Under the pieces are notes generated by a model. That model had not been told where the DNA came from and searched no databases. It saw only the letters and a list, made by a program, of their open reading frames with translations. Positions 46,907-61,948 of a stretch of DNA of 64,000 nucleotides are shown piece by piece. This DNA is from Candidatus Mediterraneibacter merdipullorum. Lineage in GTDB: Bacteria; Bacillota; Clostridia; Lachnospirales; Lachnospiraceae. Positions within the stretch are counted from its first letter, which is position 1. Each line of letters starts with the position of its first letter. The stretch is from NCBI GenBank assembly GCA_019117125.1, contig DXAL01000051.1:1-64000 (forward strand), read 5' to 3'. Both the position numbers and the translations under genes were made by a program.

Positions 46907-46935
46907 TTGTCAAATTATTAACAATGTGATATGAT
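46907..46935 (+). promoter_or_regulatory. Rex operator inside the mdh-hdr-flx-frd-fum promoter
   Basis: TTGTCA (46907-46912), 17 bases and TATGAT (46930-46935) form the promoter. TTGTCAA-ATTA-TTAACAA (46907-46924) matches the Rex consensus TTGTTAA-N4-TTAACAA at 13 of 14 defined bases and covers -35 and spacer. Rex leaves DNA when NADH is high. The rest of 46787-47102 shows no gene. Confidence 0.8.
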
Positions 46936-47102
46936 GGGAAAAGCGAAATCTGATTAATAAAGTGAGGAGTCACAGACCGATGTACAGACAGAAGGGATAA
47001 GAAAGCAGGATTCTTAATGTGGGCAGACAACGGTGGTTTAATCATGATTTCTTTTTTTATTTTCAGAAAACGAAAAACAACAAGAAAGGCAGAGGAGAAA
47101 CT

Positions 47103-48050
47103 ATGAGCAGCAAAATCACAATCATCGGCGCCGGAAGCGTCGGAGCGACAATCGCGTACAAACTTTCCTATGAAGAATTCGTATCCGAAATTGTCATGAT
47201 TGACATCAACAATGACAAGGTCGAGGGAGAAGTCATGGATATCGAGCAGGGTACCTGCTTCAGAAGCCCGATTTCCATCGTCGCCGGAACATACGAGGAT
47301 GCAAAGGATTCCGATATCGTGATTATTACATCCGGTATCGCGCGCAAGCCGGGTCAGACAAGAATCGAACTGGCGCAGACCAACGTAAATATCATCAAGT
47401 CCATCACACCGGAGATTGTCAAGGCAGCGCCGAATGCGAAATACATCATCGTAAGCAACCCGGTGGACGTGCTGACCTATGTATTCACAAAGATTTCCGG
47501 ACTTCCGGAGAACCAGATTATCGGTTCCGGCACACTGCTTGACACCGCGCGTCTGCGTTACGGACTGTCCAGACATTTCAATGTGGCACAGAAGAACATC
47601 CACGCATATGTATACGGCGAGCACGGCGATTCTTCCTTCGTTCCGTGGTCCGGAGCAAACATCGCGAGCATGCCCATCGATGACTACTATAAAGATATGA
47701 CGGCGCGCGGCGTAGAGCTTACCGAACTGGACAAGCCGGCGATGGAAGAGTACGTGCACAAGTCAGGCGGACAGGTTATCGCGAAGAAGGGCGCTACCTT
47801 TTACGCAGTATCCATCTCTGTTGTAGAGCTGTGCAACCTGGTGCTGGCAGCTTCCAATTCCGTTGCGACGGTATCTTCCATGATGCACGGCGAGTACGGC
47901 ATCGAGGATGTGTGCTTAAGCGTTCTTTCCCTTGTAGGACCGGACGGCGTGGTCGGCAAAGTCCCGATGCACCTGACAGACGAGGAGATCGAGAGACTCC
48001 AGGCAAGTGCAAATAAGCTGAAAGACGTTATCGCTCAGCTTGATATTTAA
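47103..48050 (+). CDS. mdh: LDH-like malate dehydrogenase
   Basis: 315 aa of the lactate/malate dehydrogenase family: NAD loop GAGSVGATIA (residues 9-18), catalytic Asp147, Arg150 and His174 (LLDTARLR, GEHGDSS). The specificity loop reads ARKPGQTR: Arg81 stands where true L-LDHs have Gln (position 102, dogfish numbering) and a Gln stands where LDHs have Glu. Both point to a C4-dicarboxylate such as oxaloacetate. Automatic annotation may call it L-lactate dehydrogenase. Start 47103 follows AGGCAGAGG. First gene of the Rex-controlled operon with fumarase and fumarate reductase, so oxaloacetate to malate is the likely reaction. Confidence 0.75.
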   Translation: MSSKITIIGAGSVGATIAYKLSYEEFVSEIVMIDINNDKVEGEVMDIEQGTCFRSPISIVAGTYEDAKDSDIVIITSGIARKPGQTRIELAQTNVNIIKSITPEIVKAAPNAKYIIVSNPVDVLTYVFTKISGLPENQIIGSGTLLDTARLRYGLSRHFNVAQKNIHAYVYGEHGDSSFVPWSGANIASMPIDDYYKDMTARGVELTELDKPAMEEYVHKSGGQVIAKKGATFYAVSISVVELCNLVLAASNSVATVSSMMHGEYGIEDVCLSVLSLVGPDGVVGKVPMHLTDEEIERLQASANKLKDVIAQLDI

Positions 48051-48059
48051 GAGATGTTT

Positions 48060-48084
48060 CCCTCTGCGGGCTTTCTGCAGAGGG
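48060..48084 (+). promoter_or_regulatory. Intercistronic hairpin between mdh and hdrB
   Basis: CCCTCTGC (48060-48067) and GCAGAGGG (48077-48084) form an 8-bp stem with a 9-base loop and no T tract. It may protect or process the mRNA so that mdh is made in larger amounts than the genes behind it. Confidence 0.5.
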
Positions 48085-48137
48085 TTACTCAAGTAACAGG
48101 ACGGAAGACCCGTCTGACAGACAAGGAGGTAAACACT

Positions 48138-48935
48138 ATGAAATACAGCTATTTTCCCGGCTGTACGCTGAAGAATAAAGCTGTGGACCTGGACCGTTAC
48201 GCCAGAATCTCCGCTGAGGCTCTCGGATTTGAGCTGGAGGAGATTGAGGAGTGGCAGTGCTGCGGCGGCGTGTATCCGCTTGGCACCGATGAGATTGCCA
48301 CGAAGCTGGCTTCTGTCCGTGCCCTCAACGATGCGAAAGAGCACGGTCAGGACCTGGTGACGGTCTGTTCAGCATGCCATCACGTGATTAAGCGCGTCAA
48401 CGACGACATGCAGAACGTGGATGACATCCGCACAAGGGCGAACAATTACCTGAAGCTTGACGAGCCCTATGAAGGCGAGACGACGGTGCTCCATTATCTG
48501 GAAGTGCTCCGCGACCGCGTGGGATTCGATGAGCTGAAGAAAAAAGTCGTGAAACCCCTTACCGGAAAGAAGATCGGCGCTTACTACGGATGCCTGCTCC
48601 TTCGCCCGGGCAAGGTCATGGCATTCGACGATCCGGAGAACCCGACCATCCTGGAGGACTTCATCCGCGCCCTGGGCGCTGAGCCGGTAATCTACCCGTA
48701 CCGGAACGAGTGCTGCGGCGGCTACATTTCCCTGAAGGAAGAGGACATGTTAAAGAACATGTGCCGCAAGATCGAGGAGAGCGCGGCGGGATTCGGCGCG
48801 GATATGCTTATCACGGCCTGTCCGCTGTGCATGTACAACCTGAATAAAAACAACGGCGGCAACCTGCCGGTATACTATTTCACAGAACTTCTTGCAGAGG
48901 CTCTGGGACTCAAAGAGGAGGTGGATGAGCAGTGA
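48138..48935 (+). CDS. hdrB: HdrB-like subunit, heterodisulfide reductase type
   Basis: 265 aa. Two complete CCG motifs: Cys9, Cys41-Cys42, Cys77-x2-Cys80 in the first, and CLLLRPG, ECCGGY, CPLCMYN in the second. These bind the non-cubane [4Fe-4S] clusters that in methanogens cleave CoM-S-S-CoB. Here no heterodisulfide is expected; HdrB-like subunits in bacteria deliver the high-potential electron branch to another acceptor. The start at 48138 follows CAAGGAGG. GTGA overlap with hdrC. Confidence 0.9.
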   Translation: MKYSYFPGCTLKNKAVDLDRYARISAEALGFELEEIEEWQCCGGVYPLGTDEIATKLASVRALNDAKEHGQDLVTVCSACHHVIKRVNDDMQNVDDIRTRANNYLKLDEPYEGETTVLHYLEVLRDRVGFDELKKKVVKPLTGKKIGAYYGCLLLRPGKVMAFDDPENPTILEDFIRALGAEPVIYPYRNECCGGYISLKEEDMLKNMCRKIEESAAGFGADMLITACPLCMYNLNKNNGGNLPVYYFTELLAEALGLKEEVDEQ

Positions 48936-49321
48936 AAACCGAACAGAAACGCGCGGAGATGATTAAGGAAATCAGCGGCGTCAATCCGCTCAAATGCATG
49001 AAGTGCGGCAAATGTTCCGCTTCCTGCCCGTCCTACAACGAGATGGATATCAAGCCCCACCAGTTCGTGTCTTATGTGATTAATGAAGATATCGAATCCC
49101 TGGTAAAATCAAAATCCCTCTGGAAATGTCTTTCCTGCTTTGCCTGCATCGAGAGATGTCCGCGCGACGTGAAGCCGGGCAAGCTCATCGACGCGGCGAG
49201 ACAGATCGTTGTGCGTGAGAGAGGACAGAATTACCTGCTGGCGGATGAGATACCGGAGCTTGTAGACCCCGACACACCGCAGCAGCTTCTCGTAAGTGCA
49301 TTAAGAAGATACAGGAGGTGA
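48932..49321 (+). CDS. hdrC: HdrC-like iron-sulfur subunit
   Basis: 129 aa with two [4Fe-4S] motifs: CMKCGKCSASCPSY and CLSCFACIERCPRD. It carries electrons between HdrA and HdrB. A GTG start overlaps the hdrB stop. It lies 6 bases before hdrA, preserving the hdr gene set as B-C-A. Confidence 0.9.
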   Translation: MKTEQKRAEMIKEISGVNPLKCMKCGKCSASCPSYNEMDIKPHQFVSYVINEDIESLVKSKSLWKCLSCFACIERCPRDVKPGKLIDAARQIVVRERGQNYLLADEIPELVDPDTPQQLLVSALRRYRR

Positions 49322-49327
49322 TAACAG

Positions 49328-51316
49328 GTGCAGAGGATAGGAGTATTTGTCTGCCACTGCGGATCAAACATCGCCGCAACGGTAGACGTTAAGAAAGTCG
49401 CTGAGATGGCGCTCCATGAGCCGGGCGTCGTACATGCGGAAGACTATCAGTATATGTGTTCCGAGGCCGGCCAGGAGAAGATCAGGGAAGCCATTCAGCA
49501 GAAACATCTGACAGGACTTGTCGTCTGTTCATGTTCTCCGCGTATGCACGAGACGACATTCAGAAACGCAGCGGAGAGAGCGGGCCTGAACCCGTATATG
49601 GTGGAAATCGCCAACATCCGTGAGCATTGTTCATGGATTCACAAAGATATCGAAGAAGCTACAGAGAAGGCAGTCATCCTGATGCGTGCGGCTGTTGCGA
49701 AAGTGAATCTTGACGCGCCGCTGCAGCCGGGCGAGAGCCGTGTGACGAAGCGTGCACTTGTGATCGGAGGCGGCATCGCCGGCATCCAGACCGCGCTCGA
49801 CATCGCGGAAGCGGGCTACCCGGTGGATATCGTGGAGAAGACGCCGAGCATCGGCGGAAGGATGTCCCAGCTTGACAAGACATTCCCGACCCTGGACTGC
49901 TCATCCTGTATCCTGACCCCGAAGATGGGTGAAGTGAACGCGCATCCGCTGATCAACATCTATACATACAGCGAGGTGGAGAGCGTATCCGGATTCGTGG
50001 GCGACTTTACAGTCGAAATCCGCAAGAAAGCAAGAAGCGTGGATATGAACAAGTGTACCGGCTGCGGCCTCTGCCAGGAGAAGTGCCCGAGCAAGAAGAC
50101 GCCCAGCGAGTTCAACCGCGGCTTAAGCACCAGAAGCGCCATCTACACACCGTTCGCACAGGCGGTTCCGAACGTTCCGGTGATCGACCGTGACGCATGT
50201 ATCAAGTTCAAGACCGGAAAATGCGGTCTCTGCGCAAAAGTGTGCCAGGCAGGAGCTATCGACTACGACCAGATCGATGAGATCGTAACAGAGAAGTACG
50301 GCGCCATCGTTGTCGCTACCGGATTCGACATGATCAAGCTGGATAAATATGACGAGTACGCATACAGCCAGAGCAAGGATGTCATCACATCCCTGGAGCT
50401 GGAGCGCATCATGAATGCGGCAGGACCGACAGGCGGACATCTGGAGCGCCTCTCCGACGGCAAAGCGCCGAAGGAGCTGGTATTCATCCAGTGTGTGGGC
50501 AGCCGGTGCGCAGACGACCGGGGCAAGAGCTACTGTTCCAAAGTCTGCTGTATGTATACGGCAAAACATGCCATGCTGATCCGCGACAAGTATCCGGATA
50601 CCAACGTGACCGTGTTCTACATCGACGTGCGTACGCCGGGCAAGAACTTCGATGAGTTCTACCGCAGAGCCGTTGAGGATTACGGTGTAAACTACATCAA
50701 AGGCCAGGTCGGAAAGGTCATCCCGCAGCCGGACGGCAAGCTGCTCGTACAGGGCGCGGACCTGATCGACAACAAGCAGATCCTGAAAGAGGCGGATATG
50801 GTCGTTCTTGCAGCTGCCATTGAGCCGAACCCGGATGTGCGGAAGATCGCGACCATGCTCACCGCGAGCATCGACACGAACAACTTCCTCACAGAGGCGC
50901 ACGCGAAGCTCCGTCCGGTGGAGTCTCCGACAGCCGGCATCTTCCTCTCGGGCGTATGCCAGGGACCGAAAGATATCCCGGAGACCGTATCCCAGGCAGG
51001 AGCTGCCGCTGTGAAAGCCATCGGCCTTCTTGCAAAAGATAAACTGCTGACCAATCCGTGTACGGCACATTCCGACGAACTCCTGTGCAACGGATGTTCC
51101 CAGTGTGCGAATGTCTGCCCGTACGGTGCGATCACCTACGAGGACAAAGAGGTGAACGATCACGGAATCCGCGAGACAAGACGCATTGCGGTTGTAAATG
51201 ACGCACTGTGCCAGGGCTGCGGTGCCTGCACCGTAACATGTCCGTCCGGCGCAATGGACCTGCAGGGATTCTCGAACAGACAGATTCTAGCGGAGGTGGA
51301 TGCGATATGTCGATAG
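49328..51316 (+). CDS. hdrA: HdrA-like bifurcating flavoprotein
   Basis: 662 aa, full HdrA length. An N-terminal Cys domain (VFVCHCGSNI, VVCSCSPRMHE, REHCSWIH) leads into a thioredoxin-reductase-like FAD domain (ALVIGGGIAGIQTALDIAEAG; DCSSCILTPKM), with an inserted ferredoxin part (CTGCGLCQEKCPSKK, CGLCAKVCQAG). The C-terminal ferredoxin has CNGCSQCANVCPYG and CQGCGACTVTCPSG. HdrA's FAD is the established electron-bifurcation site in Hdr complexes. GTG start after AGGAGG. It overlaps the next gene by 10 bases. Confidence 0.93.
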   Translation: MQRIGVFVCHCGSNIAATVDVKKVAEMALHEPGVVHAEDYQYMCSEAGQEKIREAIQQKHLTGLVVCSCSPRMHETTFRNAAERAGLNPYMVEIANIREHCSWIHKDIEEATEKAVILMRAAVAKVNLDAPLQPGESRVTKRALVIGGGIAGIQTALDIAEAGYPVDIVEKTPSIGGRMSQLDKTFPTLDCSSCILTPKMGEVNAHPLINIYTYSEVESVSGFVGDFTVEIRKKARSVDMNKCTGCGLCQEKCPSKKTPSEFNRGLSTRSAIYTPFAQAVPNVPVIDRDACIKFKTGKCGLCAKVCQAGAIDYDQIDEIVTEKYGAIVVATGFDMIKLDKYDEYAYSQSKDVITSLELERIMNAAGPTGGHLERLSDGKAPKELVFIQCVGSRCADDRGKSYCSKVCCMYTAKHAMLIRDKYPDTNVTVFYIDVRTPGKNFDEFYRRAVEDYGVNYIKGQVGKVIPQPDGKLLVQGADLIDNKQILKEADMVVLAAAIEPNPDVRKIATMLTASIDTNNFLTEAHAKLRPVESPTAGIFLSGVCQGPKDIPETVSQAGAAAVKAIGLLAKDKLLTNPCTAHSDELLCNGCSQCANVCPYGAITYEDKEVNDHGIRETRRIAVVNDALCQGCGACTVTCPSGAMDLQGFSNRQILAEVDAICR

Positions 51317-51750
51317 AAAAGAATGAAGAATTCAGACCAAAGATCGTGGCGTTCTGCTGCAACTGGTGCAGCTACGCCGGAGCAGACCTGGCGGGAAGCA
51401 GCCGTATGTCCTATTCGGCAGACGTGAAGATCATCCGCGTTCCCTGTTCATGCCGCGTCAATCCGATGTTCATCTTGAGAGCATTCGAGAAAGGCGCCGA
51501 CGGCGTGATCATGTGCGGATGCCATCCGGGAGACTGCCACTATACGTCAGGCAACTACTATGCGAGAAGACGTATGACGCTCCTGTTCTCCATGCTGGAT
51601 TACATCGGAGTGGAGAACGGACGTACCCGCGTTGAGTGGGTATCCGCCGCAGAGGGCGCAAAATTCTCACAGACCATGCATGAGTTTGTGGACAAGATCA
51701 AATCCCTCGGCAAGAATGTAAGATTGGAGGATTTAAGATGCAGGAATTAA
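51307..51750 (+). CDS. MvhD/FlxD-like [2Fe-2S] electron-transfer protein
   Basis: 147 aa. MvhD family: KIVAFCCNWCSYAGADLAG, VPCSCRVNP, IMCGCHPGDCHYTSGN. It links an electron-input module to HdrA. In methanogens the partner is a hydrogenase; in bacteria FlxD plays this role for the NAD(P)H-dependent Flx module, as the next genes suggest. Start 51307 lies inside hdrA after GCGGAGGTGG. Confidence 0.9.
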   Translation: MSIEKNEEFRPKIVAFCCNWCSYAGADLAGSSRMSYSADVKIIRVPCSCRVNPMFILRAFEKGADGVIMCGCHPGDCHYTSGNYYARRRMTLLFSMLDYIGVENGRTRVEWVSAAEGAKFSQTMHEFVDKIKSLGKNVRLEDLRCRN

Positions 51751-52712
51751 TCAACCGCGCAAAAGAGCTTCTGGCCGACGGAACCGTGGCAAGAGTGCTC
51801 GGATGGAAAGCCGGGGACCTGCCTTACAATCCGGAACCGGCTTACTTTGAGAAAGAGGAAGACTTCGCAGACTTCGTTTACAACGGCTTCTGCGGGGCCA
51901 ACTTAAGCAAATATATGATCGAGGCTTCCAAGCTGGAGGGCAAAACCCTCGTATGCCTGAAGCCGTGCGATACATACAGCTATCAGGAACTGTTGAAAGA
52001 ACACCGTGTGGACCGCGAGAAAGCGTATATCATCGGCGTGGGCTGCAAGGGCAAGCTGGACATCGAGAAAATCCGCGCCATGGGCATCAAAGGCATCAAA
52101 AACATCTCCGGCGCAGAGATTGAAGATGAAGCGGAGACGCTGACCATCGATACGATCTACGGTGAGAAGACATGCGCGTATACAGACGCCATGCTGGAGC
52201 GGTGCCACGTATGCAAGGGCAAGGACCATATGATCTTTGACGAGATCATCGGCGAGTCCAAAGAGACGAAAGATGCAGACCGTTTCGCGGAAGTGGAAAA
52301 GATTGAGGCCATGAGCCCGGAAGAGAAGTTCGCATTCTTCCAGAAAGAGCTGAGCAAATGCATCCGCTGCAACGCCTGCCGCAATGTATGTCCTGCATGC
52401 AGCTGCCGCAAGTGTGTATTTGACAGCAACAAGTTCGACAGCTCACAGAAAGCGAACGTGGATTCCTTCGAGGAGAAGATGTTCCACATCATCCGCGCCT
52501 TCCATGTGGCCGGAAGATGTACGGACTGCGGCGAGTGCAGCAGAGTATGTCCCCAGGGCATCCGCCTGCATCTCTTCAACCGCAAGTTTATCAAAGATAT
52601 CAACGAGCTCTACGGCGAGTATCAGGCCGGGGCGGACCTGGAGCCCAGGACTCCGCTGACCAACTATACGACGGAAGACGCAGAGCCTGGAATTGTGGCA
52701 GAAAGGGGATAA
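51738..52712 (+). CDS. FlxC-like iron-sulfur protein
   Basis: 324 aa. The N-terminal part (VCLKPCDTYSYQEL, IIGVGCKGKLD, CHVCKGK) resembles FrhB/FdhB-type proteins. The C-terminal part has two [4Fe-4S] motifs, CIRCNACRNVCPAC and CTDCGECSRVCPQG, with an additional CSCRKC. It is probably the electron conduit between the FAD/NAD(P) protein and the MvhD-like protein. Start 51738 overlaps the previous gene and follows GGAGGATTTAAG. Confidence 0.8.
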   Translation: MQELINRAKELLADGTVARVLGWKAGDLPYNPEPAYFEKEEDFADFVYNGFCGANLSKYMIEASKLEGKTLVCLKPCDTYSYQELLKEHRVDREKAYIIGVGCKGKLDIEKIRAMGIKGIKNISGAEIEDEAETLTIDTIYGEKTCAYTDAMLERCHVCKGKDHMIFDEIIGESKETKDADRFAEVEKIEAMSPEEKFAFFQKELSKCIRCNACRNVCPACSCRKCVFDSNKFDSSQKANVDSFEEKMFHIIRAFHVAGRCTDCGECSRVCPQGIRLHLFNRKFIKDINELYGEYQAGADLEPRTPLTNYTTEDAEPGIVAERG

Positions 52713-52716
52713 TGTT

Positions 52717-53757
52717 ATGTATAAGATCGCAAAAGAAAATCTGACGGCATTATTTCAGAAGATCGCCGCAGAACAGGAATTATATCTTCCGGTCCGCAAT
52801 GAAGGACAGGTGAACTTCGGCGCCTGGACGGAAGGGGCGGATGTGGACATTGATACGCTCAAGACGGTCAAATCTCCGAAAGACGCGTTCTTCCCGCAGA
52901 GCGAGACGCTTTACACCTGCGTGAAGGAAGGGAAGAAGATCAGCGTGACGCCGGAGGCGTTAAAAGAGCAGAACTTCGTTGTATTTGGCATGAGAGCCTG
53001 CGATGTGAGAGGCGTGGAAGTGCTGGACAAAGTGTTCCTCGTTGACCCGCTGGATACATTCTATGCGGCGAGACGGGACCACGGCACCATCGTTGCCCTT
53101 GCCTGCCACGAGCCGGAAGAGACCTGCTTCTGCAAGGTGTTCGGCATCGATGCGGCAGAGCCGGCGGCAGACGTTGCAACCTGGCTCATCGGAGATGAAC
53201 TGTACTGGAAACCGCTCACTGAGAAGGGCGAGGCGCTGACAGAGGCTGTGAAAGACGTGCTTACAGAGGACGGCAGCGCAGATGAGACGGTAGAGAAAGA
53301 AAAAGAAGCCATCCGCGGCATCGTGGAGCAGCTTCCGTACACCCACCTCTCCCTGGAGGGATGGAACGGCGACGTCCTGATGGAGAAATTTGAGGACCCG
53401 CTGTGGGATGAACTCTACAAACCGTGCCTTGCATGCGGCACCTGCACATTTGTGTGCCCCACATGCCAGTGCTACGATATCAAAGACTATGACACAGGAA
53501 AGAACGGCGTGCAGAGATATCGCTGCTGGGATTCCTGTATGTACTCAGACTTTACGATGATGGCCCACGGCAACAACCGTAAGTCACAGAAAGAGAGATT
53601 CCGCCAGAGATTCATGCACAAGCTTGTATACTTCCCGGCGAACAACGACGGGATGTACTCCTGCGTAGGCTGCGGCCGCTGCGTGGAGAAATGTCCGGAA
53701 TCCCTGAACATCGTGAAGGTGATCAAAGCATTTGCAAAAAGGGGAGGTGAAAAGTAA
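52717..53757 (+). CDS. FlxB-like iron-sulfur protein (sulfhydrogenase beta type)
   Basis: 346 aa. The N-terminal domain (VVFGMRACDVRGVEVLDKVF) is typical of sulfhydrogenase/anaerobic sulfite reductase subunit A-like proteins; two clusters follow at the end, CLACGTCTFVCPTCQC and CVGCGRCVEKCPES. Start 52717 is favoured over nearby ATGs by AAAGGGGAT. It overlaps flxA by one base. Confidence 0.85.
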   Translation: MYKIAKENLTALFQKIAAEQELYLPVRNEGQVNFGAWTEGADVDIDTLKTVKSPKDAFFPQSETLYTCVKEGKKISVTPEALKEQNFVVFGMRACDVRGVEVLDKVFLVDPLDTFYAARRDHGTIVALACHEPEETCFCKVFGIDAAEPAADVATWLIGDELYWKPLTEKGEALTEAVKDVLTEDGSADETVEKEKEAIRGIVEQLPYTHLSLEGWNGDVLMEKFEDPLWDELYKPCLACGTCTFVCPTCQCYDIKDYDTGKNGVQRYRCWDSCMYSDFTMMAHGNNRKSQKERFRQRFMHKLVYFPANNDGMYSCVGCGRCVEKCPESLNIVKVIKAFAKRGGEK

Positions 53758-54611
53758 TGAGTGAATGTACATGCCATAAGAACTATACACTGGATACCCT
53801 GATCCCGAAGGTAGGCGTGATCACAGATATCCGCGAGGAGACGCCGGACGTGAAGACATTCCGTGTCAATGCGCCGGAAGGCGGCAAGCTCTTCGAGCAT
53901 ATGCCGGGACAGTGCGCGATGCTCTGTGCGCCGGGGATCAGCGAGGGTATGTTTTCGATTACTTCTTCGCCGACCAACAAAGATTACCAGGAGTTCAGCA
54001 TTAAGAAGTGCGGAATGCTCACAGATTATCTTCACAGCCTGGAAGTGGGCGATGAGATCACTGTCCGCGGACCGTACGGCAATCATTTCCCGGTAGAGGA
54101 CAAGCTCAAAGGCAAAGACCTGCTCTTCATCGCCGGAGGCATCGGCCTTGCGCCGCTGCGTTCCGTAATCAACTACGTGCTGGACAACCGTGACGACTAC
54201 GGCACCGTGGATATCGTATACGGTTCCCGCTCCGCAGACGACCTGGTACAGTTAAAGGAGATTCAGGAAGTGTGGATGAACGCACCGGATGTGCATGTCC
54301 ACCTGACCATCGACCGCGAGCAGGAAGGATGGGACGGCCATGTGGGATTCGTGCCGAACTATGTGAAGGAGCTTGGCTTCGATGTGAACAAGACAGCGCT
54401 GATCTGCGGACCTCCGATCATGATCAAGTTCACGCTGGCCGGACTGGAAGAGCTGGGATTCTCCAGAGATCAGGTCTACACGACGCTGGAGCTGCGTATG
54501 AAATGCGGCATCGGCAAGTGCGGCAGATGCAACATCGGATCAAAATATGTATGTAAAGACGGCCCGGTATTTCGTTGCGATGAGATCGATGAGATGCCGA
54601 ATGAGTACTAG
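53757..54611 (+). CDS. FlxA-like FAD/NAD(P)-binding oxidoreductase
   Basis: 284 aa. Ferredoxin-NADP reductase fold: FAD region MFSITSSPTN, NAD(P) loop LLFIAGGIGLAPLRSVI, GPPIMIKFTLAGLEELG, and a C-terminal [2Fe-2S] site MKCGIGKCGRCNIG...YVC. This is the sulfhydrogenase gamma type, the likely entry point for NADH or NADPH into the Hdr complex. The operon's Rex operator favours NADH. Confidence 0.9.
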   Translation: MSECTCHKNYTLDTLIPKVGVITDIREETPDVKTFRVNAPEGGKLFEHMPGQCAMLCAPGISEGMFSITSSPTNKDYQEFSIKKCGMLTDYLHSLEVGDEITVRGPYGNHFPVEDKLKGKDLLFIAGGIGLAPLRSVINYVLDNRDDYGTVDIVYGSRSADDLVQLKEIQEVWMNAPDVHVHLTIDREQEGWDGHVGFVPNYVKELGFDVNKTALICGPPIMIKFTLAGLEELGFSRDQVYTTLELRMKCGIGKCGRCNIGSKYVCKDGPVFRCDEIDEMPNEY

Positions 54612-54628
54612 GGAAAGGAAGAAATATC

Positions 54629-55303
54629 ATGGAAAAGATGGTAAATGTATATTTTTTCGGTAAGAAATACAGTGTGCCGGCAGACCTGACGATCATGACA
54701 GCGATGGAATATGCGGGTTATACACTGAAAAGAGGATGCGGCTGCCGTCACGGTTTCTGCGGTGCCTGCGCGACGATTTACAGGATCAAAGGCAAGAATG
54801 AGCTGAAGACATGCCTGGCCTGTCAGACACAGGTAGAAGAGGGCATGTATGTGGCAAGCATCCCGTTCTTCCCGACAGACAAGAGAACCTACGACATTAA
54901 CGAAGTGAAACCGGAGCAGCGCATCATGATGGACCTCTATCCGGAGATTTACAGCTGCATCGGCTGCAACGCCTGCACGAAGGCCTGCACACAGGACCTG
55001 AACGTCATGCAGTACATTGCATATGCACAGCGCGGCGAGTTCGAGAAATGTGCGGAAGAGTCCTTCGACTGTATCGGATGCGGATGCTGTTCCGTAAGAT
55101 GTCCGGCAGAGATTTCCCACCCGATGGTCGGAGTCCTTGCAAGACGTCTCACAGGAAAATACATCGCGCCGGAGTCCAAACACCTGACCGAGCGTGTGGA
55201 AGAAATCCACCACGGCGAGTATGACCAGCTCATCGAGCAGATCATGGAGAAGCCGATCGAAGAGATGCAGGAACTTTACAACAACAGAGAGATCGAGAAA
55301 TAA
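54629..55303 (+). CDS. frdB: Fumarate reductase/succinate dehydrogenase-type iron-sulfur subunit
   Basis: 224 aa. N-terminal [2Fe-2S] domain (Cys39, 44, 47, 62; GCRHGFCGAC) and C-terminal clusters CIGCNACTKAC (110-120) and CIGCGCCSVRCP (148-158). Standard FrdB has a [3Fe-4S] third cluster where the second Cys is replaced; here that Cys is present, predicting [4Fe-4S]. There is no membrane-anchor gene nearby, so it should link the flavoprotein to a soluble donor such as HdrB. Start 54629 follows AAAGGAAG. Confidence 0.88.
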   Translation: MEKMVNVYFFGKKYSVPADLTIMTAMEYAGYTLKRGCGCRHGFCGACATIYRIKGKNELKTCLACQTQVEEGMYVASIPFFPTDKRTYDINEVKPEQRIMMDLYPEIYSCIGCNACTKACTQDLNVMQYIAYAQRGEFEKCAEESFDCIGCGCCSVRCPAEISHPMVGVLARRLTGKYIAPESKHLTERVEEIHHGEYDQLIEQIMEKPIEEMQELYNNREIEK

Positions 55304-55315
55304 GGAGGGAAGATC

Positions 55316-56917
55316 ATGTTTACACCGGAAATGATGGAATCCGTTCAGAAAGTGGAGGCCACCAGAGAAGCGCGTCTGGGCGTTGAACCGAGACGTATGA
55401 CTGCGGATGAGAAAGATGCTCTCCTTAAGGAGTTCCATCCTGATTACAAGGAAGACGCATTCGCGGAGATCAAGGTAGGACCGAACAAAGGGCAGAAAGC
55501 GCCGAGGGAGCTGGTACATCTTCTCCACTCCAACAGCCGTCTGCTCACAGACAAAGTAGATATCAGCAAAGTGGATTATGACGTGGACGTTCTCGTGATT
55601 GGCGGCGGCGGAGCGGGAGCTTCCGCAGCCATCGAGGCAAATGAGGCGGGCGCCAACGTTATGATCGTGACAAAACTCCGTATCGGCGATGCCAACACCA
55701 TGATGGCAGAGGGCGGCATCCAGGCTGCAGACAAAGAGAACGACTCTCCGGTACAGCACTACCTGGACGCATTCGGCGGCGGACATTTCGCTGCAAGACC
55801 GGAGCTTTTAAGACGTCTTGTCATGGAAGCGCCGGACGCCATCAAATGGCTCAATGAACTGGGAGTTATGTTCGACAAGGATGAGACGGGCCGTATGATC
55901 ACCACACACGGCGGCGGAACATCCAGAAAGAGAATGCATGCCTGCAAGGATTACTCCGGAGCAGAGATCATGCGTACCCTTCGCGACGAAGTCCTGAACC
56001 GTCAGATCCCGGTCGTTGAATTTACGGCTGCGGTAGAACTGATCAAAGACGACAGAGGACAGGTTGCAGGCGCGGTTCTCCAGAACCTGGAGACAGACGA
56101 TTACCTGGTGGCAAAAGCGAAAACCGTCATCATCGCCACAGGCGGTGCGGGACGTATGCACTATCAGGGATTCCCCACATCCAACCATTACGGAGCGACA
56201 GCAGACGGCCTGATCCTCGGATACCGTCTGGGCGCACCGCTCCTTTACCAGGATACAATCCAGTATCACCCGACAGGCGTGGCATTCCCGTCACAGATTT
56301 TCGGCGCGCTGGTTACAGAGAAGGTACGTTCCGTAGGCGCACAGCTTGTCAACGTGGACGGCGAGGCATTCATGCATCCGCTTGAGACCCGTGACGTGGC
56401 TGCGGCATCCATTATCCGTGAGTGTACGGCGCGCGGCAAAGGCGTGACCACACCGCTCGGAAGCGGCGTATGGCTTGATACGCCGATGATCGAGATGCTC
56501 GGCGGACCGGGAACGATCGAGAAACGCATCCCGGCGATGCTGCGTATGTACATGAACTATGATATCGATATGAGAAAACTTCCGATCCTTATCTACCCGA
56601 CCCTTCACTATCAGAACGGCGGACTTGAGATCGGAGGAGACGGCTTTACAAAAGTCATCGACAACCTGCTCGTTGCAGGCGAGGCTGTCGGCGGAATCCA
56701 CGGAAGAAACCGTCTGATGGGCAACTCTCTCCTTGATATCATCGTATTCGGACGCAATGCAGGAAAGGCTGCGGCTGCCAAAGCAAAAAATGTGGAACTG
56801 GGCAATATGAACCTGAACCACATTGAAGCTTACGCAGAGGAATTAAAAGAGGCAGGGCTGAGCACAGAAGACGTCTCTCCGCTCATCCTTCCGAAATATG
56901 CGAGACACGAGAGATAG
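55316..56917 (+). CDS. frdA: Soluble fumarate reductase flavoprotein subunit
   Basis: 533 aa. After an N-terminal extension of about 85 residues with no FAD motif, the FAD domain starts VLVIGGGGAGASAA (about 93-106). Catalytic and substrate residues are present: His318 (YHPTG), Arg338, Arg359 (TRDVA) and His431 (PTLHYQNGG). The position of the covalent-FAD His of SdhA/FrdA is Asn127 (GDANTMMAEGG), so FAD is probably bound non-covalently, as in soluble fumarate reductases. It reduces fumarate to succinate. Confidence 0.9.
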   Translation: MFTPEMMESVQKVEATREARLGVEPRRMTADEKDALLKEFHPDYKEDAFAEIKVGPNKGQKAPRELVHLLHSNSRLLTDKVDISKVDYDVDVLVIGGGGAGASAAIEANEAGANVMIVTKLRIGDANTMMAEGGIQAADKENDSPVQHYLDAFGGGHFAARPELLRRLVMEAPDAIKWLNELGVMFDKDETGRMITTHGGGTSRKRMHACKDYSGAEIMRTLRDEVLNRQIPVVEFTAAVELIKDDRGQVAGAVLQNLETDDYLVAKAKTVIIATGGAGRMHYQGFPTSNHYGATADGLILGYRLGAPLLYQDTIQYHPTGVAFPSQIFGALVTEKVRSVGAQLVNVDGEAFMHPLETRDVAAASIIRECTARGKGVTTPLGSGVWLDTPMIEMLGGPGTIEKRIPAMLRMYMNYDIDMRKLPILIYPTLHYQNGGLEIGGDGFTKVIDNLLVAGEAVGGIHGRNRLMGNSLLDIIVFGRNAGKAAAAKAKNVELGNMNLNHIEAYAEELKEAGLSTEDVSPLILPKYARHER

Positions 56918-56936
56918 AAAGGGAGAGTAGAGTAAG

Positions 56937-58106
56937 ATGTTTTTAGTAAACTGGTTTCAGGAGAGCGTCATGGGCGAGACGCTGATGGTCCTCTTCCTGG
57001 TGGCGTTCGTAGGCTACCTTGTGGGAAGCATCACCATCAAGGGCGTAGAACTGGGGACGGCAGGCGTACTGCTTGTCGCCCTGGTATTCGGACATTTCCT
57101 CGGAAATGATGAAGCGCTGGTGGAAGGGCTTGGCATGTTCCAGGACCTGGGACTCATCTGCTTCGTGACGTCCGTCGGATTTATCGCCGGACCGAAGTTC
57201 TTCCGGAACTTTAAGATTAATGCAAAATCCTATATCCTTCTGGGATTCATCGTTATACTCATCGGAGCGCTCACCACAGTGGGCATCATCGAGATTGGCG
57301 GCATCCCGACGGATATCTCCGTGGGCATGATGTCCGGAGCACTTACCAGTACGCCGGGACTTGCGGCAGCCCTTGACGCCACCGGTTCTGCCAACGCGTC
57401 CATCGGATACGGTATCGCCTATCCTTTCGGCGTGGTCGGCGTGGTGCTCTTCGTGCAGCTGATTCCGAAAATCCTGCACACCGATATGGATGCGGAGCGC
57501 GCGAAATTCGAGGCGGCGCAGAATGTGGGAGATGTGCAGAAGAAGGATAAACTGTTCCATGTGGACCCGATGGGATTCTTCCCGTACGCGCTGGCGATTG
57601 CCCTGGGCATCGTCATCGCAAAGATTGTCATCCCGCTTCCGGGCGGTGCGGAGTTCTCACTGGGGACATCCGGCGGTCCGCTCATCGCAGGTCTGATTCT
57701 GGGACACTTCGGGCATGCGGGCAAAATCAGCTTCCATGTGGAGAAATCCGTGCTCGAGTGCTTAAGAGAGTTCGGTCTCGCCCTGTTCCTGATTGGAGCG
57801 GGCGTCGAGGCGGGCGCAGGGTTCATCGAGATACTGAAGGAACACGGACTCATTCTGTTCGTGTACGGCGCGCTGATTACCCTGATTCCGATGGTCATCG
57901 GATATTTTGTGGCGACGAAGTTCATGAAGCTGAGCCTCTTCAATACGCTCGGTTCCATCTGCGGCGGCATGACGAGTACACCGGCTCTCGGAACTCTGAT
58001 TCGTGTGACCGGCACAGACGATGTGGCAAGCGCCTATGCGGCGACCTATCCCGTCGCGCTGGTATTCGTCGTACTGGCGTGCCAGTTTATAGGCATTTTC
58101 TTATAA
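56937..58106 (+). CDS. AspT-type exchanger lacking the TrkA_C domains, probable C4-dicarboxylate transporter
   Basis: 389 aa, about ten helices. Two Asp-Al_Ex domains each carry the family motif: SGALTSTPGLAAAL in the first and GGMTSTPALGTLI in the second. Classic aspartate:alanine exchangers (about 540 aa) have two central TrkA_C domains; here only a short charged linker (about residues 180-215) is present. In this operon, exchange of succinate with fumarate, malate or aspartate would fit. Start 56937 follows GGGAGAG. Confidence 0.85.
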   Translation: MFLVNWFQESVMGETLMVLFLVAFVGYLVGSITIKGVELGTAGVLLVALVFGHFLGNDEALVEGLGMFQDLGLICFVTSVGFIAGPKFFRNFKINAKSYILLGFIVILIGALTTVGIIEIGGIPTDISVGMMSGALTSTPGLAAALDATGSANASIGYGIAYPFGVVGVVLFVQLIPKILHTDMDAERAKFEAAQNVGDVQKKDKLFHVDPMGFFPYALAIALGIVIAKIVIPLPGGAEFSLGTSGGPLIAGLILGHFGHAGKISFHVEKSVLECLREFGLALFLIGAGVEAGAGFIEILKEHGLILFVYGALITLIPMVIGYFVATKFMKLSLFNTLGSICGGMTSTPALGTLIRVTGTDDVASAYAATYPVALVFVVLACQFIGIFL

Positions 58107-58125
58107 TGAAAGGAGTTGACTTCCA

Positions 58126-58968
58126 ATGCGTGAAATCAATGTAAGTACACTCACCGATGTAATCGAGAGACTCTGCATCGATGCAAACAATCATCTCCCG
58201 GGAGATGTGAAATGTGCCATCCGTGACTGCCGTGCCTGTGAAGACGGCGAGATAGCACAGGGAGTCCTCGATAATATCATCGAGAACTTTGAGATCGCGG
58301 ACAGCGAGAACGTGCCCATCTGCCAGGATACCGGCATGGCGTGCGTATTCCTTGAGATTGGACAGGACGTGCACCTTGTGGGCGGCGACTTGAGAGAAGC
58401 GGTAGACGAGGGCGTACGCCGCGGATATACGAACGGATATCTGCGCAAGTCTGTAGTGAAGGACCCGGTGCGCCGCGGCAATACCGGCGACAATACACCG
58501 GCAATGCTCTACACGGAAATCGTGCCGGGCGAAAACATCAAGGTCACGGTCGGACCGAAGGGATTCGGCAGTGAGAACATGAGCCAGATTCGGATGTTCA
58601 AACCGTCGGCAGGTCTCCAGGGCATCAAGGATTTCATCCTCGAAGCGGTGGAGACGGCAGGACCGAACCCGTGCCCGCCGATGGTAGTGGGCGTCGGCAT
58701 CGGCGGTACATTTGACAAATGTGCGCTCCTCGCAAAGAAAGCGCTCATGCGGCCGCTGGATTCCTCCAATCCGGACCCGTTCTATGCTGACCTTGAGAAG
58801 GAGATGCTGGAGAAGATAAACGAACTGGGCATCGGACCCCAGGGCTTTGGCGGAAAGACGACAGCCATCGGACTGAATATCGAGACGCTTCCGACACATA
58901 TCGCAGGCATGCCCTGCGCGGTAAATATCAACTGTCATGTGACACGCCACAAATCGGAGGTGATATAA
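58126..58968 (+). CDS. fumA: Class I fumarase, alpha subunit
   Basis: 280 aa, the two-subunit (TtdA-like) type. [4Fe-4S] ligands and motifs: ICQDTGMACVFLEIG, NTPAMLYTEIVPG, FGSENMSQIRMF and NPCPPMVVGVGIGG. It dehydrates malate to fumarate in the reductive branch. The start at 58126 follows AAAGGAG, and the beta gene begins at the very next base after its stop. TtdAB-like tartrate dehydratase is an alternative. Confidence 0.92.
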   Translation: MREINVSTLTDVIERLCIDANNHLPGDVKCAIRDCRACEDGEIAQGVLDNIIENFEIADSENVPICQDTGMACVFLEIGQDVHLVGGDLREAVDEGVRRGYTNGYLRKSVVKDPVRRGNTGDNTPAMLYTEIVPGENIKVTVGPKGFGSENMSQIRMFKPSAGLQGIKDFILEAVETAGPNPCPPMVVGVGIGGTFDKCALLAKKALMRPLDSSNPDPFYADLEKEMLEKINELGIGPQGFGGKTTAIGLNIETLPTHIAGMPCAVNINCHVTRHKSEVI

Positions 58969-59526
58969 ATGGCAAGAAAGATTACATTACCACTTACAGA
59001 GGAACTTGCTAAGACGCTCCACGCAGGAGACCAGGTGCTCCTGACAGGGACCATCTATACATCCCGCGACGCCGGACACAAGAGGATGTGCGAGGCGCTG
59101 GCAAAAGGCGAGGATATCCCCTTTGACCCGAAGGATGCGACCATCTACTATGTGGGACCGACTCCGGCGAAACCGGGACAGGTCATCGGCAGCGCAGGAC
59201 CGACCACAAGCGGACGTATGGATGCTTATGCGCCGACCATGATGTCTGTGGGCGCGCGCGGCATGATTGGAAAGGGCGCACGTCTTCCGGAAGTGGTGGA
59301 AGCCATGAAGAAATACAGCGGCGTGTACTTCGGAGCTATCGGCGGAGCCGGAGCACTGCTTGCAAAATGCATCAAGAAGGCAGAGCTCATCGCTTTTGAA
59401 GACCTGGGCGCTGAGGCTCTGAGGAAACTCTATGTAGAGGATATGCCGGTTGTCGTCATCATTGACAGCGAGGGCAATAACCTGTACGAAGAGGGAAGAA
59501 AAGCATATCTGGATTCCAGGAAATAG
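58969..59526 (+). CDS. fumB: Class I fumarase, beta subunit
   Basis: 185 aa. Beta-domain motifs: LLTGTIYTSRDAGHKRM, PTPAKPGQVIGSAGPTTSGRMDAYAP, GAIGGAGALLAKCI. It completes the active site with the alpha subunit; translation is coupled, with GGAGGTGATA in the alpha gene. Last gene of the operon, followed by a strong terminator. Confidence 0.92.
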   Translation: MARKITLPLTEELAKTLHAGDQVLLTGTIYTSRDAGHKRMCEALAKGEDIPFDPKDATIYYVGPTPAKPGQVIGSAGPTTSGRMDAYAPTMMSVGARGMIGKGARLPEVVEAMKKYSGVYFGAIGGAGALLAKCIKKAELIAFEDLGAEALRKLYVEDMPVVVIIDSEGNNLYEEGRKAYLDSRK

Positions 59527-59549: not shown

Positions 59550-59607
59550 CGGGATGCCGGTGTCATTGACGGAAAAGTCTGTCAGATGGCACCGGCATCC
59601 TTTTTTT
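59550..59607 (+). terminator. Terminator of the Rex-controlled operon
   Basis: GGATGCCGGTG (59552-59562) pairs perfectly with CACCGGCATCC (59590-59600), with GAC/GTC inside, then TTTTTTT. Confidence 0.92.
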
Positions 59608-59655
59608 ATTTTAAGAATATTACAAAAGACTGTTTGAAGATTACAAAAGATGAGC

Positions 59656-60011: not shown

Positions 60012-61319
60012 ATGAAAGAGCAACTGGCTGTATACATTGAAATAAAAGGGAAAAGCATCTATGTGGGAAATATAACAGGAGATTCGCCGATAAATGCGTC
60101 TTTTCGGTATGCGGATGAATATATGTCTCAGGAAGGAAACCGTCCGATATCAATCAGTCTTCCGTTTTCCGATTCTCCGTTTTCATCAGAGCAGACATTC
60201 CGTTTTTTTGACGGACTTCTCCCGGAAGGTTTTACAAGGCGGTGTGTAGCCGGATGGATGCATGTGGATGAGAACGATTATCTGTCTATTCTGGCGGGAT
60301 TGGGGAAGGAATGTCTTGGTGCAGTAAAGATTTTAACATCTGCAGATTCAAAACATCGGCCGAAGTATCGGAAAATAACGGAAAACGAGGTCAGAAGACT
60401 GGCGGCAGAGGGGGCAACAGAATCTGCTCAGATGGTAACAAAAGCGCACCTGTCGCTTACCGGTGCTTCTGGAAAAGTCGGGTTGTATCTGGATGCTGAT
60501 ACCGGTCAATGGTATCTTCCCCTGGGTGAAGCTCCGAGTACACATATTGTCAAACAGAGTCATGTCCGTCTCCAGAGGATTGTGGCTAACGAGCAGTTGT
60601 GTCTTTTGACGGCAGGAAAACTTGGAATTGAAATACCAGAAAGCTTTATTATCAATATCGGAAACAATACGGACGAAGATGTTTTGTTTGCAACAAAAAG
60701 ATATGACCGAAAAATGACTTCGGGCGGGGTGCGGATTGACGGACTTTCGGTTCCGTTCCGCCTCCATCAGGAAGACTTTGCGCAGGCGCTGGGGATTCCG
60801 GCTGAGCGAAAATATGAAGGAGAACAGGACGGTTATCTGAAAAAGATGTTTGAACTGCTGCGTGCATATTCGACAGACCCGATGGAAGACCAGTTGAAAT
60901 TGTGGGACCTTTGCATCTTTAATTATCTGATTGGAAATACAGACAACCATATAAAAAATGTCTCGCTGCTTTACAGTGAAGATTTAAGAGCGGTCCGTCT
61001 TGCACCGGCTTACGATATTGTCAGTACTGTGGTTTATGAAAACAGTACAGAAGATATGGCGCTTTACATTGGCGGGGTACGAAGACTCCCGGATATCAGA
61101 CGTCAGTCGTTTCTGGCAGAAGCCGGTCATATCGGACTGGGAGAAAAGATGGCAGAGAAACGGCTGGATAGCATGGCAGACCGTTTTGAACGTGCATTGG
61201 TTGAAGCACAGACCGAATTAGAAGCACAGGGATTTTATCAGGCAGGCGGGTTGAAAGACAAGATACTCAGGTATGGCGGGTATCACTATATTCTTGATGG
61301 CACTTCTTTAGCAAGTTAA
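60012..61319 (+). CDS. hipA: HipA-like serine/threonine kinase toxin
   Basis: 435 aa. N-terminal HipA_N domain (to about residue 105), then the kinase core: flexible P-loop LSLTGASGKVGLY, ATKRYDR, RLHQEDFAQALG, catalytic GNTDNHIKNVSLL and the DFG-like APAYDIVST. E. coli HipA phosphorylates glutamyl-tRNA synthetase and causes persistence; the target here is unknown. All key residues appear intact. Its stop overlaps the convergent LysR remnant in the palindromic TTAA. AT-rich compared with the operon before it, suggesting acquisition. Confidence 0.9.
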   Translation: MKEQLAVYIEIKGKSIYVGNITGDSPINASFRYADEYMSQEGNRPISISLPFSDSPFSSEQTFRFFDGLLPEGFTRRCVAGWMHVDENDYLSILAGLGKECLGAVKILTSADSKHRPKYRKITENEVRRLAAEGATESAQMVTKAHLSLTGASGKVGLYLDADTGQWYLPLGEAPSTHIVKQSHVRLQRIVANEQLCLLTAGKLGIEIPESFIINIGNNTDEDVLFATKRYDRKMTSGGVRIDGLSVPFRLHQEDFAQALGIPAERKYEGEQDGYLKKMFELLRAYSTDPMEDQLKLWDLCIFNYLIGNTDNHIKNVSLLYSEDLRAVRLAPAYDIVSTVVYENSTEDMALYIGGVRRLPDIRRQSFLAEAGHIGLGEKMAEKRLDSMADRFERALVEAQTELEAQGFYQAGGLKDKILRYGGYHYILDGTSLAS

Positions 61320-61948
61320 CTGACATCCGCGAATTTCGCCTGCATCTGCTTCAGAAACAGCTCCGCCGCGGGCGAGAACACTTGATGCTTCTTCCATACG
61401 ACATTCAGCCCGGATTCCAGTTTCGGAGAGAGGGGGCGGAAGCACAGGCTGCTGTCCCCGGAAGTATCAATCAGATTGTCCAGCGTGACAGCGTATCCGA
61501 TGCCGGCTTCGACCATGATGGCGGCGTTGTAGACCAGATTGAAGGTAGTGACGATGTTCAGCCCCACATAGTCCGCGCCGAACCAGTCCGCATAGCTGTT
61601 TCCCTCCAGACGGGGTGAGAGCGCCTGGCGGGAACAGATGAGAGGAAGACCAAGAAGGTCTTCTTTTTTGATGCTGGATTTTGCGGCAAGGGGGCTGTCT
61701 TTGCGCATGACAACGCCCCAGGTGTCTTGCAGTTCTTTTATGATTTTCGCAATCTCTGTCATTGCCCTTGTCTCTCCGCCGCCGATATACACGCTGCCGC
61801 TGATGGTATTCCCCATGGAGATGAATTCTTCCAGCTCTTTAATCTGGCGGGACAGAGTGGGCTGCGTCAGGTGCAGGGAGTTGGCTGCGGCAGTGATGCT
61901 CCCTTCCCTTGCGACGGCAAGAAAATAGCGGAGTACGCGGGTTTCCAT
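61316..61948 (-). pseudogene. LysR-family regulator remnant with internal deletions
   Basis: 210 codons from the ATG at 61948, which has its own AGGAGG. The start METRVLRYFLAVAREGSITAAANSLHLTQPTLSRQIKELEE is a LysR helix-turn-helix (read here in parts), but the usual ELGxxLF...G segment after it is missing and reading continues ISGSVYIGGGETRAMTEI. After AKIIKELQ it jumps to DTWGVVMRKDSPLA, skipping a further part of the ligand domain. Normal length is about 300 aa. The frame is also open through the upstream ABC remnant. Confidence 0.75.

What the first reader, a model, noticed from the sequence alone, without database searches (positions are those of the whole stretch)
46907..59526. Predicted NADH-dependent, Hdr/Flx-coupled soluble fumarate reduction operon
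Thirteen same-strand genes with overlaps or short gaps encode malate dehydrogenase-type enzyme, HdrB-HdrC-HdrA, an MvhD/FlxD-like protein, FlxC-, FlxB- and FlxA-like proteins, FrdB and FrdA, an AspT-type exchanger, and both fumarase subunits. From sequence: all cluster ligands, the HdrA FAD motif, two HdrB CCG motifs and FrdA catalytic residues are intact, and no Frd membrane anchor is present. From established knowledge: HdrA bifurcates electrons, and Flx modules feed it from NAD(P)H in Desulfovibrio. Inference: NADH is oxidised, ferredoxin is reduced, and the HdrB branch ends on fumarate, so succinate formation would yield reduced ferredoxin instead of membrane-coupled respiration. I do not know a characterised complex with this exact gene set.
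Basis: partly seen in the sequence, partly recalled or inferred. Interest (0 to 1): 0.92.

Follow-up and report, generated by a model that had tools for sequence, protein, structure and literature searches.

The report
Soluble fumarate reductase with Hdr/Flx genes
A gut bacterium carries one 13-gene operon that probably makes succinate by using NADH to reduce fumarate in the cytoplasm while also charging ferredoxin, an idea already proposed for one heat-loving Clostridium but not yet proven, and here found in many gut Clostridia.

Summary
Observation confirmed: thirteen same-strand genes (mdh, hdrBCA, flxDCBA, frdBA, AspT-type exchanger, fumarase alpha/beta) end at a strong terminator hairpin; cofactor ligands are intact and no membrane anchor was found.

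The set is tightly linked. Among 391 class genomes, this FrdB family and close HdrA co-occur in 53 of the 55 genomes that have either. Of 138 distinct loci, all 108 with enough upstream sequence hold all seven Hdr/Flx genes, 107 in one order.

FrdA lacks the flavinylation histidine; FrdB has a second four-cysteine cluster site instead of [3Fe-4S]; HdrB keeps ten cysteines; HdrA keeps the lysine at the bifurcating flavin. RnfC and PEPCK are present, MenB and Sdh_cyt not found. Best reading: 2 NADH + fumarate + Fd(ox) give succinate + Fd(red), HdrC/HdrB feeding FrdB. No biochemistry shows this.

The hypothesis is in print for Pseudoclostridium thermosuccinogenes (2019 preprint, 2020 paper). New here: the breadth; the changing partners of FrdAB elsewhere in the phylum (4 of 21 checked genomes have no HdrA hit); and the contrast with the plain NADH-dependent enzyme assumed for Blautia luti in 2026. 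Interest: moderate.

The parts
46907..46935 (+). promoter-like site TTGTCA-17-TATGAT with TG before the -10
   Evidence: 10 of 12 matches; such sites are no more frequent than in shuffles
47103..48050 (+). mdh: LDH/MDH-fold dehydrogenase with malate-type Arg at residue 81
48138..48935 (+). hdrB: two CCG domains, ten conserved Cys; 148.2 bits to the SdhE and 143.8 to the HdrB model
48932..49321 (+). hdrC: two [4Fe-4S] sites
49328..51316 (+). hdrA: 50% identical to HdrA of 5ODC; Lys413 aligns with Lys409 at the bifurcating FAD
   Evidence: role of Lys409 from PMC6405883
51307..51750 (+). flxD: MvhD-like protein
   Evidence: FlpD, 182.9 bits
51738..52712 (+). flxC-like 4Fe-4S dicluster protein
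52717..53757 (+). flxB-like protein (sulfhydrogenase beta / AsrA-like)
53757..54611 (+). flxA-like FAD/NAD(P)H oxidoreductase (hydrogenase gamma / AsrB-like)
54629..55303 (+). frdB: Cys pattern for one [2Fe-2S] and two four-Cys [4Fe-4S] sites, no [3Fe-4S] site
55316..56917 (+). frdA: anchor-less flavoprotein with 88-aa N-terminal extension, no C-terminal domain hit, Asn127 at the flavinylation position
56937..58106 (+). AspT/YidE-type exchanger, likely dicarboxylate (succinate) transport
   Evidence: TIGR01625, two copies; substrate is inference
58126..58968 (+). class I fumarase alpha subunit
   Evidence: NF004885, above cut-off
58969..59526 (+). class I fumarase beta subunit
   Evidence: NF005310, above cut-off
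59551..59608 (+). intrinsic terminator hairpin and U-run

Best explanation
The operon encodes a quinone-free succinate fermentation route. MDH and fumarase turn oxaloacetate (from PEP carboxykinase) into fumarate, and a cytoplasmic Flx-Hdr-Frd complex reduces it. FlxA oxidises NAD(P)H, most likely NADH. FlxB, FlxC and FlxD pass electrons to the FAD of HdrA, which splits them: one branch to ferredoxin, the other through HdrC and HdrB to FrdB and FrdA, which reduces fumarate to succinate. HdrB acts as an electron relay that docks FrdB, as the HdrB-like SdhE and the CCG part of TfrB may do in other complexes, rather than as a disulfide reductase. Net: 2 NADH + fumarate + Fd(ox) -> 2 NAD+ + succinate + Fd(red). 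Rnf re-oxidises ferredoxin and conserves energy; the AspT-type exchanger exports succinate. Shown here: gene content, co-retention, residue patterns, RnfC and PEPCK in the genome. Inferred: complex formation, electron order, bifurcation, donor, transport substrate.
For: Co-retention: FrdB and close HdrA in 53 of 55 genomes among 391. Synteny: 138 distinct loci; all 108 with room hold the seven Hdr/Flx genes, 107 in the same order; the 30 cut by contig ends agree. The exception (L108) and four further loci hold the same nine genes with frdBA in front; these five form one FrdA clade apart from the class set. Pathway: a fumarase on the same strand in the fetched stretch in 69 of 73 loci with room on both sides, 54 class I and 15 the unrelated class II enzyme, and MDH in 60 of 73. 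Direction: Asn at the flavinylation site in 181 of 181 rows; PMC9557727 says soluble homologues with noncovalent FAD only reduce fumarate (passages). Anchor-less design: second four-Cys site instead of [3Fe-4S] in 184 of 184 rows, as in SdhABE enzymes whose SdhE is HdrB-like (PMC2680327, passages). Small unit: hdrC-hdrB-frdB-frdA stand together without HdrA/Flx next door in 4 loci plus one cut contig; HdrA lies elsewhere in those 4 genomes. HdrA: 28 of 31 Cys of 5ODC and Lys409 conserved. Genome: RnfC 501.8 bits, PEPCK 816.2 bits, no MenB, no Sdh_cyt. Literature: the P. thermosuccinogenes operon rose about 4-fold under CO2 limitation, not significantly for every subunit (PMC7282089); soluble NADH:fumarate activity 35.7 against 5.7 mU/mg in membranes of Pelotomaculum (PMC10308238), assigned there to a cytoplasmic FrdAB whose sequence I did not compare.
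Against: I saw no purified complex and no ferredoxin measurement for this system. The FrdAB family has no Hdr next door in 17 of 38 phylum loci; HdrA is elsewhere in 13 of those genomes and not found in 4, and the FrdA rows of those 4 nest inside the class set, on long branches, so other donors must exist. HdrB keeps all ten Cys (137 of 137) and its 5 solved relatives are all true HdrB, so disulfide chemistry is not excluded. An operon does not prove physical contact. The FrdB model was too poor to use (pLDDT 55). Oliverpabstia intestinalis carries the genes, but in the passages seen (12 of 17 places) I found no succinate value for it. Only RnfC, not the whole Rnf set, was searched for.
Confidence: 0.68

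Rival explanations
1. Thiol relay: Flx-Hdr reduces a small disulfide at HdrB (with bifurcation), and a separate FrdAB oxidises the thiols, as thiol:fumarate reductase does in methanogens.
For: HdrB keeps all ten Cys in 137 of 137 rows and its 5 solved relatives are HdrB chains; FrdA's best NCBIfam match is TfrA; PMC7282089 words Flx-Hdr as passing NADH electrons to ferredoxin and thiols.
Against: FrdB lacks the CCG part that TfrB carries, so HdrB would have to serve both jobs; HdrBC and FrdBA stay adjacent even without HdrA/Flx next door in 4 loci.
Confidence: 0.15
2. Non-bifurcating: Flx feeds NADH electrons through Hdr to Frd one-to-one, without ferredoxin reduction.
For: The 2026 Blautia luti paper uses a plain NADH-dependent fumarate reductase in its energy budget (PMC12773636). 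Pelotomaculum soluble extracts show NADH:fumarate activity (PMC10308238).
Against: HdrA keeps the N5-contacting Lys (139 of 139 rows) and 28 of 31 Cys of the bifurcating enzyme; a simple NADH-FrdAB route would not need nine subunits.
Confidence: 0.12
3. FrdAB and Flx-Hdr share an operon for co-regulation only; Frd takes electrons from ferredoxin, flavodoxin or another donor.
For: FrdAB of the same family sits beside pyruvate carboxylase, or malic enzyme- or sucCD-like genes (by reading) in other lineages, and 4 of 21 genomes have no HdrA hit.
Against: In the class 53 of 55 genomes keep both; the nine genes stay together in more than one order; the four Hdr-less rows are on long FrdA branches, which suggests changed constraint.
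Confidence: 0.05

Closest known systems
Proposed Flx-Hdr-Frd 'succinate operon' of Pseudoclostridium thermosuccinogenes (PMC7282089, passages; preprint 10.20944/preprints201912.0288.v1 seen only as its reference)
   Same: fumarase, Flx-Hdr genes, FrdAB and a putative transporter together; same proposed coupling to ferredoxin
   Different: here mdh is in the operon and fumarase is the two-subunit class I enzyme at the 3' end; gut bacteria; sequences not compared here
FlxABCD-HdrABC of Desulfovibrio vulgaris (Ramos 2015, seen only as a reference)
   Same: seven-subunit NADH dehydrogenase/Hdr module
   Different: assigned by its title to ethanol metabolism; no linked fumarate reductase that I know of (recalled)
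E-type SdhABE / methylmenaquinol:fumarate reductase (PMC2680327, passages)
   Same: B subunit with a second [4Fe-4S]; HdrB-like ten-Cys subunit
   Different: quinone-linked, with a twin-arginine export motif; SdhE and SdhA model scores here far below their cut-offs
Thiol:fumarate reductase TfrAB of methanogens
   Same: TfrA is the best NCBIfam model for FrdA; the TfrB model matches FrdB, HdrC and HdrB in its successive parts
   Different: here FrdB and HdrB are separate proteins and scores are below the cut-offs
MetFV-HdrABC-MvhD of Moorella (PMC5861303, passages)
   Same: HdrA-based complex fed by NADH with a non-disulfide terminal acceptor
   Different: acceptor is methylene-H4F through MetFV, not fumarate

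Membership tests
Flx-Hdr module | HdrA, HdrB, HdrC and FlxA-D in one cluster | tested here: met
   108 of 108 loci with room
Flx-Hdr module | NADH as electron donor | not testable with these tools
   FlxA has FAD- and NAD-binding domains; specificity untested
Proposed Flx-Hdr-Frd succinate operon | fumarase + Flx-Hdr genes + FrdAB + transporter in one cluster | tested here: met
   window against the text of PMC7282089
Proposed Flx-Hdr-Frd succinate operon | orthology to the P. thermosuccinogenes proteins | not tested
   its sequence was not fetched by name
Electron-bifurcating HdrA complexes | HdrA FAD-N5 lysine and cluster cysteines | tested here: met
   K413 = Lys409; 28 of 31 Cys; K in 139 of 139 rows
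Electron-bifurcating HdrA complexes | coupled ferredoxin reduction | not testable with these tools
   needs purified complex
E-type SdhABE | second [4Fe-4S] Cys pattern in the B subunit | tested here: met
   12 Cys in 184 of 184 rows
E-type SdhABE | SdhE/SdhA equivalog scores | tested here: not met
   148.2 bits against 500; 207.6 against 1100
TfrAB | TfrB with fused CCG domain; TfrA cut-off | tested here: not met
   FrdB 224 aa without a CCG hit; TfrA 325.7 against 718
Membrane quinol:fumarate reductase | membrane anchor and flavinylation His | tested here: not met
   no Sdh_cyt hit; Asn127 in 181 of 181 rows
L-aspartate oxidase | NadB equivalog score | tested here: not met
   248.5 against 452.75; a separate NadB-like gene elsewhere in the genome (by reading)

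The most novel reading that the evidence does not exclude
HdrB in this family has become a relay and docking subunit for FrdB instead of a disulfide reductase. FrdB-FrdA is then a portable, quinone-free fumarate terminus that Bacillota plug into different Hdr front ends (Flx-Hdr, HdrBC, multi-HdrA assemblies), and the Flx version is the main energy-conserving fumarate reduction of succinate-forming gut Clostridia.
Probability: 0.45. Interest if true: 0.75.

Novelty: new member of a known kind. Interest (0 to 1): 0.58.

Why it matters
If true, many gut Clostridia conserve energy when they make succinate without quinones or cytochromes. Energy budgets that assume a plain NADH-dependent fumarate reductase, such as the one for Blautia luti, would be too low wherever this operon is present. 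By that paper's own assumptions (2 H+ per Rnf turn, 3.6 H+ per ATP, 0.42 succinate per glucose) the difference would be about 0.23 ATP per glucose. This is my arithmetic, and I did not check that B. luti carries the operon; Blautia glucerasea does (L142). It also gives a specific test of how an Hdr complex can end on something other than a disulfide.

Tried and rejected
AlphaFold of FrdB (47 rows) gave pLDDT 55 and was not used. FrdA (46 rows) gave pLDDT 69; Foldseek only restated SdhA/FrdA kinship, best 7d6v, TM 0.57. Rfam found nothing in the window at gathering scores. Considered and rejected: lactate dehydrogenase for gene 1 (Arg specificity residue, though the LDH models are passed), L-aspartate oxidase for FrdA (score), a hidden membrane anchor (none found), succinate oxidation as the main direction (no flavinylation His), assembly artefact (same set in many genomes). 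In the listings, and in the passages I opened, I saw no purified or biochemically tested Flx-Hdr-Frd complex; (exact phrases) returned zero papers. The library is open-licence PMC only. The 2019 preprint is not held; I know it only from PMC7282089. In the FrdA tree the long rows (L215, L233, L223, L234 and others named) are unsure, and the class set is not a single side of one branch because four Hdr-less rows nest in it.
Full report
Anatomy. The window holds thirteen genes in one direction from 47103 to 59526: mdh, hdrB, hdrC, hdrA, flxD, flxC, flxB, flxA, frdB, frdA, an AspT-type exchanger and fumarase alpha and beta. Most starts follow ribosome-binding-like sequences (by reading); four gene pairs overlap. 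A promoter-like site lies at 46907-46935, but such matches are no more frequent than in shuffled sequence. A hairpin of -39.4 kcal/mol (z -7.4) running into a U-run ends the unit. Rfam finds no RNA family in the window at gathering scores.

Proteins. Gene 1 passes the lactate dehydrogenase equivalog but carries Arg at the specificity position in 100 of 100 rows; by the recalled LDH/MDH rule it is a malate dehydrogenase. HdrA is 50% identical over 643 aligned residues to HdrA of 5ODC, keeps 28 of its 31 cysteines, and has Lys413 where 5ODC has Lys409, the lysine at N5 of the bifurcating FAD (PMC6405883, passages). HdrA and FlxD together match the fused HdrA2 model end to end, below its cut-off. 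HdrB has two CCG domains and scores slightly better to the SdhE anchor model (148.2 bits) than to HdrB (143.8), both far below the cut-offs; its five solved relatives are all HdrB chains. FlxA and FlxB match hydrogenase gamma and beta and AsrB/AsrA models, FlxD matches MvhD, and FlxC is a 4Fe-4S dicluster protein. The Flx names follow resemblance and recall of the Desulfovibrio cluster.

The Frd pair. FrdA's best NCBIfam model is TfrA (325.7 bits, cut-off 718). It keeps the residues that align with the active site of SdhA and flavocytochrome c3 (H318, T334, E335, R359, H431, R466, roles recalled), conserved in 178 or 179 of 179 rows. It has Asn127 where SdhA has the flavinylation His, in 181 of 181 rows. 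PMC9557727 states that soluble homologues with noncovalent FAD only reduce fumarate (passages). FrdA starts with an 88-residue extension and shows no match to the usual C-terminal domain. FrdB is 224 aa with twelve ligand-type cysteines invariant in 184 of 184 rows: a pattern for one [2Fe-2S] and two four-Cys [4Fe-4S] sites. A second [4Fe-4S] in place of [3Fe-4S] is what PMC2680327 describes for E-type SdhABE, whose SdhE is HdrB-like with a ten-Cys motif (passages). HdrB here keeps ten cysteines in 137 of 137 rows. These rows include near-copies.

Conservation in the genus and class. In the window's genus FrdB of at least 93% identity is in 11 of 25 genomes. HdrA of at least 88%, fragments included, is in 13. 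Ten have both; the four mismatches (G003, G004, G016, G019) all lie at contig ends. In 391 class genomes FrdB is in 54, of 36 of 223 genera, and HdrA of at least 58% identity is in 54. They share 53; the exceptions G110 and G072 are 75% and 62% complete (Fisher p 2e-63, though genomes are not independent). Five further genomes have only more distant HdrA (40-47%); in one (G062) it lies in a GlcD/GlcF-like locus (by reading), so HdrA partners do change.

Synteny. Titles include Mediterraneibacter, Merdimonas, Mordavella, Blautia glucerasea, Oliverpabstia, Dorea, Sporofaciens, Ohessyouella and Anaeromassilibacillus. With the genus, order and class loci, 138 distinct loci remain. All 108 with over 7.5 kb upstream of frdB hold the seven Hdr/Flx genes, 107 in the window's order; the 30 truncated loci agree. 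Of 73 loci with room on both sides (over 3 kb before hdrB, over 4.5 kb after frdA), 69 have a fumarase on the same strand in the fetched stretch (54 class I, 15 class II), 60 have mdh and 42 the AspT-type gene. Replacement of one fumarase by an unrelated one at the same pathway step is good evidence for the route oxaloacetate-malate-fumarate-succinate.

Beyond the class. A phylum search found the FrdB family in 39 of 398 genomes. The 38 besides the window (44-59% identity) show five settings: the nine genes with frdBA in front (4); the nine genes with hdrC first (1); hdrC-hdrB-frdB-frdA only (4, plus one cut by a contig end); Hdr genes with further HdrA-like proteins and MvhD (11, two of them cut by contig ends); and no Hdr next door (17, some near contig ends). 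In a FrdA tree of 97 rows the frdBA-first rows form one supported clade (5 rows, 99) apart from the class set; the class set shares its clade with four Hdr-less rows, L208, L211, L213 and L215, on long branches. Of 21 genomes checked from the HdrBC-only and no-Hdr settings, 17 have HdrA elsewhere, 15 of them with FlxA within about 6 kb (by coordinates). Of five Flx-Hdr regions looked at, two show all seven genes and three show six, with no hdrC hit. The four genomes behind the Hdr-less rows just named (G794, G496, G714, G493) have no HdrA hit at E 1e-30. So FrdAB is portable: usually but not always kept with Flx-Hdr.

Mechanism. The genome has RnfC (501.8 bits) and PEP carboxykinase but no MenB and no Sdh_cyt anchor; it is 94% complete, so absence is not proof, and the rest of Rnf was not searched. 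This favours a soluble complex in which NAD(P)H electrons enter at Flx, split at HdrA, and leave to ferredoxin and, through HdrC and HdrB, to FrdB and FrdA. With recalled potentials (NADH -320 mV, fumarate +30 mV, ferredoxin about -450 mV) the sum is about -42 kJ/mol, so it is feasible. The direct HdrB-to-FrdB step rests on three points: the E-type SdhABE precedent, the TfrB model matching FrdB, HdrC and HdrB in successive parts, and the HdrBC-FrdBA loci. The main rival is a thiol relay; the next is transfer without bifurcation.

What is known. PMC7282089 (passages) describes the same kind of gene set in P. thermosuccinogenes, reports about 4-fold induction under CO2 limitation (not significant for every subunit), reads an older H2-addition experiment as fitting coupling to ferredoxin, and cites a 2019 preprint for that coupling; the preprint is not held. 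PMC10308238 (passages and Discussion) measured NADH:fumarate activity of 35.7 mU/mg in the soluble and 5.7 in the membrane fraction of Pelotomaculum and assigned it to a cytoplasmic FrdAB beside an FrhB-domain protein, the NADH-oxidising partner being unknown. PMC12773636 (passages and section 18) found fumarate reductase and MDH activities and strong frdAB transcription in Blautia luti and used a plain NADH-dependent enzyme in its energy budget; words beginning with hdr or flx do not occur in its main text. The system is therefore a new member of a proposed, unproven kind, and its breadth in gut Clostridia makes the proposal worth testing.

Noticed in passing
L236, L237, L238, L240: In distant relatives HdrA (3 of 5 loci looked at) has an in-frame TGA exactly at window Cys194 and FlxD (4 of 5) at Cys72, which suggests selenocysteine at conserved cysteine positions. 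No SECIS search was made.
   Followed up: partly
window 60012-61319: A HipA kinase (PF07804, 170.9 bits) lies just downstream of the terminator, with a short HTH-like frame before it (by reading): a likely HipBA-type toxin-antitoxin pair.
   Followed up: partly
window 61316-62500 (-): One ORF joins the C-terminal part of an ABC ATPase to a LysR-type regulator with part of its length missing; perhaps a deletion fusion or pseudogene.
   Followed up: partly
L057 and L156; L188; L020 and L120: hdrA in two frames, a shortened frdA, and a shortened aspT respectively; sequencing error or decay not distinguished.
   Followed up: no
L214, L217, L218, L222, L224-L230: frdBA preceded by Hdr genes, further HdrA-like sequence (one protein of 1,092 aa in L217, 1,489 aa in L214) and MvhD; sucCD-like genes follow frdA in L214 and L217, with 2-oxoacid:ferredoxin oxidoreductase-like genes in L217 (the last two by reading). 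The electron donor there is unclear.
   Followed up: partly
L194 (G062): A different Hdr cluster: GlcD/GlcF-like genes followed by HdrBC-like, HdrA and MvhD proteins, apparently a lactate or glycolate front end (by reading).
   Followed up: no
L192 (window's own genome, contig 39): A nadB-like reading frame beside nadC- and nadA-like genes appears interrupted in this assembly (by reading).
   Followed up: no
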